Below, piece after piece: positions 23,301 through 25,996 of a stretch of DNA of 64,000 nucleotides (position 1 is the first letter of the stretch; each line of letters opens with the position of its first letter). The notes beneath the pieces were generated by a model, which saw nothing but the letters and a program-made list of their open reading frames with translations, searched no databases and had not been told where the DNA came from. This DNA is from Gonapodya prolifera JEL478. Its lineage: Eukaryota > Monoblepharomycota > Monoblepharidomycetes > Monoblepharidales > Gonapodyaceae. The position numbers and the translations under genes were made by a program. The DNA lies in NCBI GenBank assembly GCA_001574975.1, contig KQ965734.1, positions 831,637 to 895,636 of the forward strand, in the 5' to 3' direction.

Positions 23301-25996
23301 ATAGAGGATGAGTACCAGAAATTCTCGCGTCAGAAGATTGCGGAGCTTCAGGTTCTGAGTCGGAAGAAGGCTGAATCGGATCAATCATTACTCAGCTTGG
23401 AGAAGCGGCTTGATAATTCGCATATGGAACGAGAGACACTCTCAAAATTCTGTGAACAAATGAAGCAGCGTATTGTTGACTTGGAGAATGAGAGAAATGA
23501 CTTGGAGACTCTCACGGGTCAGCTGAAGAGTGCGGAACGCTTAGCTCAATCAGATCGCCAGCAAGCGGAATCCCTTCGCACTCGAATGGAGGAAGAATAC
23601 GAGCAGTTGAAGTTGAGGATGGAGCAAGATCATGAAGCACGCTCTAAACTCGAAGCAACTGAGACTTCATTGCGGGAAGAACTGGACGCAATCACACAAG
23701 AGCTGACGACAGTAATGTCCGAAAGAGACAGTGCAACAAATAGAGCCTTATTGGTTGAGACTCAGAACGTCGCTTTGGAGGATCAAATGGAAACTTTAAA
23801 AAGGAAGCTGAGGGACATGGAAGGCTCCACTGCGACATCTCCACTCAGACGGAAAGAGTCGGACAATGAAAGCTCCAAACCGCCGTCGAAAAAGTCGCCA
23901 TCCAAATTCAAAGACCTATTTTCCATCACAAAACGACAACGAAGCCAAGCCAATGAAGCGCTTCACCAATTTAACGAGGCGGAAGGGGTTTCTGATCTTC
24001 AACCTCACTCGCGACTGTCCACTTCTCTTTCCGAGAGCCAGTCCATGGCCCTCGGTAGTACAATATCCCACTCTAGGAAGCACAGTATTGATCAAGTGTC
24101 AACTTCCTCTTCATCCAAGTCAAACGATAACCTCGCAAACTCAAGTGAGTCAAATGTCATAAAGCGGACCCGGTGCATTGGATTTTCATTTATCCAAAAC
24201 GCAGTGTTCGACTTTGATTTGAAGGAAATTAGCGGTGCATTGAAAGGTGAGGCCTCGCAAAAGAAACAAGCTCTGCGATTACGAAATCAAACACAGTCAA
24301 TTCCCTAAGTACCGGACGGAAAGACCAAGAAGCACAGAATGTGGGCGAATAAATGGGCGCTTGCGAAAGGTGATGCCCTTTATCTATGGGACACCGGTGG
24401 AAAAGAACCAACCTCGCAGCCACAAACACCAGCATCTGAAGTCATTTCCCTGAGGTGATTAGCTGAATTTTAACTCGGGTGCATCCATCCAACTGTGTGT
24501 TCGCTGTGGCTCAGGATGGCATTCTTCTTTGTTTCGTCCGTTGCGCACGCGGAATTATACTTTGTCAAGGAGCGACGATGCATTTTCAAAATTCACATTC
24601 ACGATGGAAAAGACATCAAAAATGTGAGATACATCCACATCACTGTGCGTTTCCATTGTCTGAACCCTTCCACCAGACCGAACCAACCAGTCCCACCTCA
24701 TCCAAGCCCACTGATCTTCAAAGGCAACTTGCTCAACTTGATCGTGACTTAAAAGTGGAGCGTGATGTTTCCAGTGGAGCTCTTAAAATGTTCCAAAAGT
24801 ACTCCCCGAGTCACAGTGTATACAGTTCACTCAAAGAGAAACTGGAAGCGAGCAACAAAAGGGTGACCGATTTAGAGGAAGAGAGAAGAATTTTGATGGA
24901 GCAGATGGAGGCTCTCGGCATTGGAACAACTTCACAGGTGCGAGTGTTGATGTGTTTACTCATCGTTCCACGAACTGATCCAAGTCTCTGTGACAGACTA
25001 GCGAGGCAGGGATGGCGCCAGAGCTCATTGAGAAATGGAAGAACGTTTTGAGTGAGAAGTTGAGCTCATTGAAAGGCTCAAAAGAAGGTTCGGATAACGA
25101 TGAAAGGGTTCGGGAAGTGAGCAGGCAGCTCAGAATATTGGAAAAGGTAACTGCTCCAAGTTGAAACCGCAACACTCTGTGATTTACGTCTTTTTCGTTT
25201 TTACCTAGGGGCCTCTTGACGCCCAAGCGCTTGTGGTGGAAACTCTTGAAGAAGGCGGTGACGGGACGTACTTCAACTACAAAGGACATCGATTCCGTCT
25301 CTTCTCACAAAAAGGCAACACAGACCGTCGAGAAGTGCACGGTTGTCAAATCTGCCATGATGCCCTCTGGATGTTTTCTGAGATCGTGAAATGTAACGGT
25401 GAGTTCTTTCTTTAATCCAGCGACTTACCTTAAACTCACAAATGTACTGTCGCGAAGATTGTACATTGATTAGTCATAAACACTGCTACAAACAGAGTCA
25501 ACTGTCTTGCCAAACCTTCCAGACACTACGATCCACGAAACCGCTGGTGAATTTCGAATGTATTCCATTTGAAAGTTCCTCTGCTGATCTACCCGAAACA
25601 AAGTATTTCCTTGCGCCATCCGAAGGGGAGCAGCGACGATGGGTCGCTGTCCTGGAACGACTTCGCCGTGACTGTGAGCGGAGTCCGGTGGGCCTTCTCA
25701 CGCCAGACTCCCCTACCGTACCCGGTAACGACATCGGTATGTTCCTTCTCCTTCTGTCGAGTAACGCATATTTAGTGCTTATGGTTCTCTTAAAACTCGA
25801 GCAGAAGCGATTATCTCTCCCATCACTCCAACCACGCCAAACCGATGATGCTCATTGTTATTTTTGACAAACTTATTTCGTAAATATTCCTCTACATAAG
25901 AATGTTTTGAATTTTGTAGCTCGTAGTGGGCAAGCTGAGTCTCACATTCCGCAGCGTACCCCGACTGTCTGGAGCTCCTTCGGACTAGTTTTCTGA
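20340..25996 (+). CDS. ROCK/MRCK-like AGC kinase with coiled coil and split PH-C1 module
   Basis: DMPK-family Ser/Thr kinase, expected to act downstream of Rho or Cdc42 on actomyosin. Sixteen exons: 20340-20544, 20610-20785, 20847-21091, 21156-21280, 21349-21515, 21574-21635, 21700-21800, 21862-24144, 24205-24246, 24310-24454, 24515-24623, 24677-24937, 24997-25146, 25209-25398, 25458-25736, 25920-25996; 1,538 residues. The N-terminal cap [16 protein letters not shown] resembles MRCK. The kinase has [30 protein letters not shown] and ECDWWSLGV, and its tail ends LPFIGYNY. A coiled coil of about 600 residues follows. Then comes a PH first half ([15 protein letters not shown]), an extra coiled coil of about 90 residues, a C1 finger ([22 protein letters not shown]) and the PH last half ([14 protein letters not shown]). 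Splitting of PH by C1 is a ROCK trait. A 60-base in-frame stretch at 25551-25610 could be a further intron. Confidence 0.9.

What the first reader, a model, noticed from the sequence alone, without database searches (positions are those of the whole stretch)
24205..25736. ROCK-type split PH domain that also carries a coiled coil
The C-terminus reads as PH first half, then about 90 residues predicted to be coiled coil, then C1 finger, then PH last half. Known ROCK has only the C1 inserted in PH, while MRCK/citron have C1 before an intact PH. The kinase N-terminus looks MRCK-like. The gene may represent an ancestral or novel architecture between ROCK and MRCK in a fungus, relevant to how Rho/Cdc42-driven actomyosin control arose.
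Basis: partly seen in the sequence, partly recalled or inferred. Interest (0 to 1): 0.7.

Follow-up and report, generated by a model that had tools for sequence, protein, structure and literature searches.

The report
Fungal ROCK-like kinase with inserted HR1
A fungus that appears able to build flagella carries a cytoskeletal kinase whose membrane-binding end is split in the way animal Rho kinase's is, and the split also holds what looks like a Rho-GTPase-binding hairpin, which may bear on how such kinases came to sense Rho at membranes.

Summary
One gene, ATG 20340 to TGA 25848 (15 exons, 1547 residues), encodes an MRCK/ROCK-type kinase, a long coiled coil, and a PH domain split by an insert that contains a C1 finger. 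Joined without the insert, the PH halves score as one PH domain (40.5 bits; 26.1 and 11.9 apart; 25.1 with the second half reversed). The split falls in the same loop as in ROCK2. CNH, CRIB and ROCK's Rho-binding family are not listed for the protein.

The "coiled coil" in the insert (exon 11) is better read as an HR1 domain, the hairpin by which PKN and TOCA proteins bind Rho-family GTPases: best Pfam hit HR1_TOCA, predicted two-helix fold, match to HR1s of the same genome, lower scores for coiled coil of the same gene. Scores stay below Pfam's curated cut-offs, and GTPase binding is untested.

Chitin synthases and IFT57 suggest a flagellated fungus. A 2015 paper states that fungi have no ROCK gene. 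The kinase tree does not decide between MRCK and ROCK. No relatives could be fetched, so spread and ancestry remain open.

The parts
20340..25848 (+). Whole gene, 15 exons: 20340-20544, 20610-20785, 20847-21091, 21156-21280, 21349-21515, 21574-21635, 21700-21800, 21862-24246, 24310-24454, 24515-24623, 24677-24937, 24997-25146, 25209-25398, 25458-25736, 25805-25848; 1547 aa
   Evidence: One open frame through GT-AG introns of 53-68 bases; codon bias
20376..20653 (+). N-terminal segment of MRCK/ROCK type (about aa 13-83, exons 1-2)
   Evidence: Aligned to MRCK beta and MRCK alpha from aa 13-15 and to ROCK2 from aa 30
20663..21769 (+). Kinase domain (aa 87-350, exons 2-7); Lys, HRD, DFG and APE present; first Gly of the glycine loop is Ala
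   Evidence: PF00069 206.7 bits; PDB matches; residues read from the sequence
22098..23840 (+). Long coiled coil in exon 8 (about aa 440-1020, one proline, at 533)
   Evidence: Proline map; one 87-aa sample predicted as helix 2-70 plus 74-86
24228..24605 (+). PH first half (aa 1150-1234), in exons 8, 9 and 10
   Evidence: PF25346 27.9 bits in the whole protein, 30.6 in the C-terminal piece, cut-off 27; 26.1 alone; same profile range as ROCK2's first half
24704..24916 (+). HR1-like hairpin (about aa 1250-1320) within exon 11 (24677-24937)
   Evidence: HR1_TOCA 20.9 bits, HR1 18.3 bits, both under cut-off; two-helix model; hhalign E 1.2e-4 to HR1s of the same genome
24997..25146 (+). Exon 12, linker between hairpin and C1, phase 0-0
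   Evidence: no Pfam match
25281..25510 (+). C1 zinc finger (aa 1402-1458), all eight ligands, long first loop
   Evidence: C1_1 23.1 bits, cut-off 26.5; ligand pattern; 33% identity to ROCK2 C1
25589..25675 (+). PH last half (final strand and helix, about aa 1485-1513)
   Evidence: Completes PF25346 to position 127 and brings PF00169 over its cut-off when joined to the first half

Best explanation
The gene encodes a ROCK/MRCK-class kinase, the only one found in this genome among the loci read. Shown by sequence: an MRCK/ROCK-type N-terminus and kinase, a long coiled coil, and a C-terminal module in which one PH domain is interrupted, in the same loop as ROCK's, by an HR1-like hairpin followed by a C1 finger. 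Inferred mechanism: the PH-C1 module docks the kinase on membrane, and the HR1 hairpin binds a GTP-loaded Rho-family GTPase beside that membrane (Rho1 or Cdc42 class; I cannot say which). The tip thus acts as a coincidence detector for lipid and active GTPase, and the rod (about 80 nm if fully helical) holds the kinase heads at a set distance over cortical substrates such as myosin light chain. HR1 would take the place of ROCK's coiled-coil Rho-binding domain and MRCK's CRIB.
For: Split PH: joined halves 40.5 bits against 26.1 and 11.9 apart, 25.1 with the second half reversed. Same loop as ROCK2: first halves match PF25346 at 10-93 (ROCK2) and 11-92 (here). C1 nested as in ROCK2 (2rov and 2row); identity to ROCK2 C1 33% of 55 columns, MRCK-1 26% of 47, Bzz1-like 23% of 52. 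HR1: best Pfam hit of exon 11 alone, HR1_TOCA E 4.6e-4 over 14-83 of 90; no HR1 family listed for 7 of 7 coiled-coil windows of the same length (one list was cut at 25 of 27). In six-frame scans of the 47.6 Mb genome exon 11 is 5th of 8 HR1_TOCA places (19.7 bits) and 8th of 11 HR1 places (17.9 bits). A model of 7 HR1s of the same genome scores it 11.7 bits; 0 of 96 coiled-coil windows (best 5.7) and 0 of 4962 scored shuffles of 5000 (best 10.1) reach that. hhalign E 1.2e-4, probability 54.8%, 66 columns, against 0.084, 0.7%, 29 columns for one coiled-coil control. Predicted helices 11-39 and 49-80 against 2-70 and 74-86 for one control. Foldseek lists PKN1 HR1b, HR1c, HR1a and TOCA1 at ranks 2, 10, 14 and 20 of 50 rows shown; the control finds nothing. 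No CRIB, CNH or Rho_Binding listed in the protein at E up to 1. No second such kinase: of 8 other kinase loci read, 8 are on the whole closer to NDR, LATS or YPK.
Against: Exon 11 is below both HR1 cut-offs (20.9 of 27; 18.3 of 33.1), CT398_CC scores nearly as well (E 9.9e-4), and a control window reaches E 0.0015 with an unrelated family. No HR1 family is listed when the whole protein is scanned. Genome-scan E-values are only 0.038 and 0.13. In leave-one-out tests exon 11 scores 9.6-14.9 bits where 6 of the 7 HR1s score 20.9-42.1; the seventh scores 1.4. phmmer of exon 11 in PDB lists 19 sequences, none an HR1 (best ATP synthase gamma, E 0.019). Foldseek has no match at E below 0.001; rank 1 is an unrelated hairpin protein, and the rank-2 HR1b match has a TM-score of only 0.38 (1cxz 0.67, 5frg 0.75). 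C1 is below its Pfam cut-off. GTPase binding, membrane binding and expression were not tested, the split PH was not folded, and GTPase identity and substrate are guesses.
Confidence: 0.68

Rival explanations
1. The hairpin is an ordinary antiparallel coiled coil or spacer between PH and C1, or a dimer aid, with no GTPase-binding role.
For: Scores below HR1 cut-offs and near a generic coiled-coil family; Foldseek matches to unrelated hairpins, among them seryl-tRNA synthetase; the LGD-containing loop of the Bzz1-like HR1 has no counterpart in exon 11 (that this loop matters for Cdc42 binding by TOCA1 is recalled).
Against: Coiled-coil controls of the same gene score lower; exon 11 holds a Gly in helix 1 and a Ser in helix 2 that recur in 6 of 7 HR1s of the genome each (alignments).
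Confidence: 0.22
2. Splicing differs from the model: exon 11 (and perhaps 12) is a cassette that is mostly skipped, leaving a plain ROCK-like PH-C1-PH.
For: Exons 11 and 12 are phase 0 on both sides.
Against: Exon 11 has coding bias in the used frame, 0.24 against -0.14 and -0.10, without being in the training set, and matches HR1 profiles over most of its length.
Confidence: 0.08
3. The C-terminal module arose independently: a fungal MRCK-like kinase gained C1 and HR1 by exon shuffling, for example from a Bzz1-type HR1-C1 pair, and the ROCK-like split is convergent.
For: Kinase slightly closer to MRCK (bp-RELL 0.68); the same genome has a Bzz1-like protein with HR1 next to C1.
Against: The split lies in the same PH loop as ROCK2's; the C1 is somewhat closer to ROCK2's (33%) than to the Bzz1-like one (23%), a small difference on about 55 columns.
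Confidence: 0.25

Closest known systems
ROCK1/ROCK2 (Rho-associated coiled-coil kinases)
   Same: N-terminal segment and AGC kinase, long coiled coil, PH split by C1 in the same loop, no CNH or CRIB listed
   Different: No Rho_Binding (PF08912) listed in the protein or found in the genome (no eukaryotic positive control); 168 residues with an HR1-like hairpin lie between the first PH half and C1, against about 20 in the ROCK2 sequence used
MRCK (CDC42BP, C. elegans mrck-1)
   Same: Best kinase match; first PH half passes the PH_MRCK cut-off
   Different: C1 is inside, not before, the PH (7z6e; its C1 and last PH stretch align there only weakly, 2.7 and 0.0 bits, so the order in MRCK rests partly on recall); no CNH and no CRIB listed
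PKN / fungal Pkc1 HR1 domains
   Same: HR1-type hairpin in an AGC kinase
   Different: PKN has three HR1 domains N-terminal to the kinase (passages of PMC13218154); Pkc1 layout is recalled; here a single hairpin sits inside a PH domain
Bzz1/TOCA F-BAR proteins
   Same: HR1 followed by C1; the same genome has one
   Different: No kinase; F-BAR and SH3 parts named by reading the frames; C1 only 23% identical

Membership tests
ROCK | PH domain interrupted by C1 in the loop before the last strand | tested here: met
   first half ends at profile position 92, ROCK2's at 93
ROCK | ROCK-type kinase and N-terminal segment | tested here: met
   ROCK2 360.8 bits from aa 30, though MRCK beta scores 371.8
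ROCK | Rho-binding domain PF08912 in the coiled coil | tested here: not met
   Not listed at E up to 1 in the protein
ROCK | Kinase domain groups with ROCK in a tree | tested here: inconclusive
   bp-RELL 0.68 MRCK, 0.30 ROCK, 0.03 outside both; AU rejects none at 0.05
MRCK | C1 before an intact PH | tested here: not met
MRCK | CNH and CRIB domains | tested here: not met
   Neither listed; the genome's CNH and CRIB places are on other contigs
HR1 | Curated family score | tested here: not met
   20.9 of 27 and 18.3 of 33.1 bits
HR1 | Two-helix antiparallel hairpin | tested here: inconclusive
   Single-sequence prediction shows two helices, pLDDT 85, pTM 0.66; packing inferred from TM-scores 0.67 and 0.75 to 1cxz and 5frg
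HR1 | GTP-dependent binding of a Rho-family GTPase | not testable with these tools
   Needs a binding assay
C1 | Eight zinc ligands with C1 spacing | tested here: met
   H-X18-C-X2-C-X12-C-X2-C-X4-H-X2-C-X7-C; Pfam 23.1 of 26.5; canonical spacing recalled

The most novel reading that the evidence does not exclude
The nested PH-C1 architecture of ROCK predates the split of animals and fungi, and in this fungal line the kinase senses Rho through an HR1 domain built into the membrane module itself, a third way (besides ROCK's coiled-coil RBD and MRCK's CRIB) of coupling this kinase class to a GTPase.
Probability: 0.4. Interest if true: 0.75.

Novelty: new variant of a known kind. Interest (0 to 1): 0.6.

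Why it matters
A 2015 paper on ROCK states that fungi and choanoflagellates have no ROCK gene, speculates that ROCK's emergence went with integrin signalling in animal evolution, and finds RhoA binding about 20 nm from ROCK's membrane domains hard to reconcile with membrane-anchored RhoA (PMC4686654, passages). A fungal kinase with the ROCK-type split PH bears on the first point. An HR1 inside that PH would put GTPase recognition at the membrane, and so makes the second question directly testable.

Tried and rejected
Relatives: viral contigs gave no pattern match; genome contigs gave 5 pattern matches, none confirmed. Second copy in the genome: one search lists 102 places; apart from the gene's own, I read 8 loci (L014-L018, L043-L045). 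All 8 are closer to the NDR, LATS or YPK rows than to MRCK, ROCK2 or this kinase by their longest matches; short pieces of L014 and L015 lean to ROCK2 by 0.8 and 1.9 bits. NDR, LATS and YPK are my own labels for L043-L045, by reading. The weaker places were not read. PF25346 by six-frame search gave nothing, even for this gene, so that null is uninformative. phmmer with the joined PH listed 4 PDB sequences, no ROCK or MRCK. Hydrophobin and STE3 searches gave nothing but had no positive control. NCBIfam gave bacterial and archaeal kinase models, 14 of 14 under cut-off. No Rfam match or tRNA in the window. Papers: in the listings of ten searches (three of them capped at 20 of 41, 400 and 41) I saw no title or abstract start on a fungal ROCK/MRCK kinase with HR1; most subscription papers are not held.

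Full report
Gene model. Reading 18000-27500 and splicing at GT-AG introns gives one frame from ATG 20340 to TGA 25848: 15 exons, 4644 bases, 1547 residues. The introns are 53-68 bases. The last exon, 25805-25848, lies beyond the finding's end. Codon usage trained on exons 1-8 prefers the used frame in 6 of 7 untrained exons; the miss is the 44-base exon 15, exons 10, 13 and 14 are weak, and intron 8 scores like a weak exon in two frames. There is no cDNA.

Kinase. PF00069 scores 206.7 bits. Against PDB the N-terminal 433 residues match MRCK beta at 371.8 bits, MRCK alpha 361.3, ROCK2 360.8, ROCK1 351.5, DMPK 305.5 and CBK1 278.7 (best 60 of 2552 sequences shown). The MRCK matches begin at residue 13-15, ROCK2's at 30. 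The catalytic Lys, HRD, DFG and APE motifs are present; the first Gly of the glycine loop is Ala (read from the sequence). A seven-sequence tree with MRCK alpha and beta, ROCK2 and three AGC kinases of the same genome does not resolve the place: bp-RELL 0.68 for MRCK, 0.30 for ROCK, 0.03 for a position outside both; AU rejects none at 0.05. ROCK1, DMPK, citron and non-animal ROCK/MRCK relatives were not in that tree. Of 102 kinase places in the genome I read 8 loci besides this gene, and 8 of 8 are on the whole closer to NDR, LATS or YPK; the rest were not read, so 'only one' holds for those read.

Split PH. Pfam finds PH_MRCK on the first half (27.9 bits in the whole protein, 30.6 in the C-terminal piece, cut-off 27). 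Trimmed and alone the halves score 26.1 and 11.9. Joined with the insert left out they score 40.5 over positions 11-127 of 128, and PF00169 appears at 29.5 (cut-off 25.1). With the second half reversed the score is 25.1 and PF00169 is absent. For ROCK2 (letters of PDB 2rov) the first half covers positions 10-93, so the break is in the same loop. In PDB 7z6e (C. elegans mrck-1) a C1-like stretch aligns at 3-50 (2.7 bits) and the PH at 78-161 (25.4 bits) with its end at 172-197 (0.0 bits); that MRCK has C1 before an unsplit PH rests on this and on recall. The architecture is therefore ROCK-type, although residue identity of the joined PH is about the same to both (22% of 112 columns to ROCK2, 24% of 102 to MRCK-1).

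C1. All eight ligands are present in the pattern H-X18-C-X2-C-X12-C-X2-C-X4-H-X2-C-X7-C. The Pfam score is 23.1, below 26.5. Identity is 33% to ROCK2 C1 over 55 columns, 26% to MRCK-1 over 47 and 23% to a Bzz1-like protein of the same genome over 52.

The inserted hairpin, for. Exon 11 alone matches HR1_TOCA (E 4.6e-4, 20.9 bits, cut-off 27) and HR1 (E 0.0023, 18.3 bits, cut-off 33.1); HR1_TOCA is the best of 15 families listed. Seven 87-residue windows of exon 8 list no HR1 family (7 of 7; one list shows 25 of 27). In six-frame scans of the genome exon 11 is 5th of 8 HR1_TOCA places (19.7 bits, E 0.038) and 8th of 11 HR1 places (17.9 bits, E 0.13); a long coiled-coil frame follows the former at 18.2 bits. 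Seven HR1s of that genome, 5 of which pass a Pfam cut-off, were aligned without exon 11; as a profile they find PKN1 HR1b (E 1.2e-5), HR1a (0.0038), CIP4 (0.0049), HR1c (0.0068) and TOCA1 (0.28) among 11 PDB sequences at E up to 1. That model scores exon 11 at 11.7 bits; 0 of 96 coiled-coil windows (best 5.7) and 0 of 4962 scored (of 5000) shuffles (best 10.1) reach that. hhalign gives E 1.2e-4, probability 54.8%, over 66 columns; a coiled-coil control 0.084, 0.7%, over 29. AlphaFold2 from the single sequence gives helices 11-39 and 49-80 with pLDDT 85 and pTM 0.66; one coiled-coil window gives helices 2-70 and 74-86 with pTM 0.46. Foldseek lists HR1 chains at ranks 2, 10, 14, 20 and 24 of the 50 rows shown of 500; the control finds nothing.

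The inserted hairpin, against. Both HR1 scores are under the curated cut-offs; CT398_CC reaches E 9.9e-4, and a control window reaches E 0.0015 with an unrelated family. The whole-protein scan lists no HR1. In leave-one-out tests exon 11 scores 9.6-14.9 bits while the seven HR1s score 42.1, 1.4, 41.6, 30.3, 37.7, 27.7 and 20.9. phmmer of exon 11 in PDB lists 19 sequences, none HR1. In Foldseek no match has E below 0.001, rank 1 is an unrelated protein (6jqa), and the HR1b matches have TM-scores of 0.38 and 0.34. I put HR1 identity at about 0.77, a little lower than before I re-read these results.

Missing parts. No CRIB, CNH or Rho_Binding listed in the protein at E up to 1. In the genome CNH lies on C33, C65 and C13, CRIB on C60 and C9, and Rho_Binding was not found (no eukaryotic positive control).

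Organism. The genome (47.6 Mb, 207 contigs) has 36 chitin synthase matches, best 590.6 bits, though 4 of 14 bacterial and archaeal control genomes also ring for that family, and three IFT57 places on C16 above the cut-off: a fungus that probably makes flagella. The chytrid label is inference.

Mechanism. Shown: domain order and the split. Inferred: membrane docking by PH-C1, GTPase recognition by HR1, a long rod (one proline between about 440 and 1020) as spacer, and cortical substrates. The ruler idea is that of PMC4686654 for ROCK2 (passages seen), which also says that fungi and choanoflagellates have no ROCK gene. PKN1 HR1 passages were seen in PMC13218154. PMC7699638 (one passage) names 2rov as the split PH and 2row as the C1 of rat ROCK2. 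The main texts of PMC5052723, PMC6001611 and PMC7213984 were searched for ROCK, DMPK or MRCK terms with no occurrence.

Verdict. The most informative correction is HR1 for coiled coil. I file it as a kinase of ROCK-type architecture, not as a ROCK family member, since the Rho_Binding feature was tested and not met and the tree is undecided. Confidence in the best explanation was lowered from 0.70 to 0.68, and the plain-spacer rival raised from 0.20 to 0.22, after re-reading the leave-one-out and Foldseek results.

Noticed in passing
18540-20166: A cyclin-like gene lies directly upstream on the same strand (label by reading the frames).
   Followed up: no
15974-17403: Frames that read like the UPF1/RENT1 RNA helicase (label recalled).
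   Followed up: no
26016-27170: A gene with a LysM-like stretch follows downstream (label by reading).
   Followed up: no
L037/L038, L021/L022, L033/L034, L014/L015: Several loci of this genome occur twice on different contigs with very similar sequence (C119/C53, C33/C65, C95/C51, C29/C88), as in an assembly holding two haplotypes or a duplication; for the kinase gene only one copy was listed.
   Followed up: partly
L046 (C91:58500-66500): A Bzz1-like gene with HR1 next to C1 and SH3-like frames in the same genome (label by reading).
   Followed up: partly
55540-57363 and 37197-38339: Long frames that read like a PP2C phosphatase and a voltage-sensor-type channel (labels recalled).
   Followed up: no
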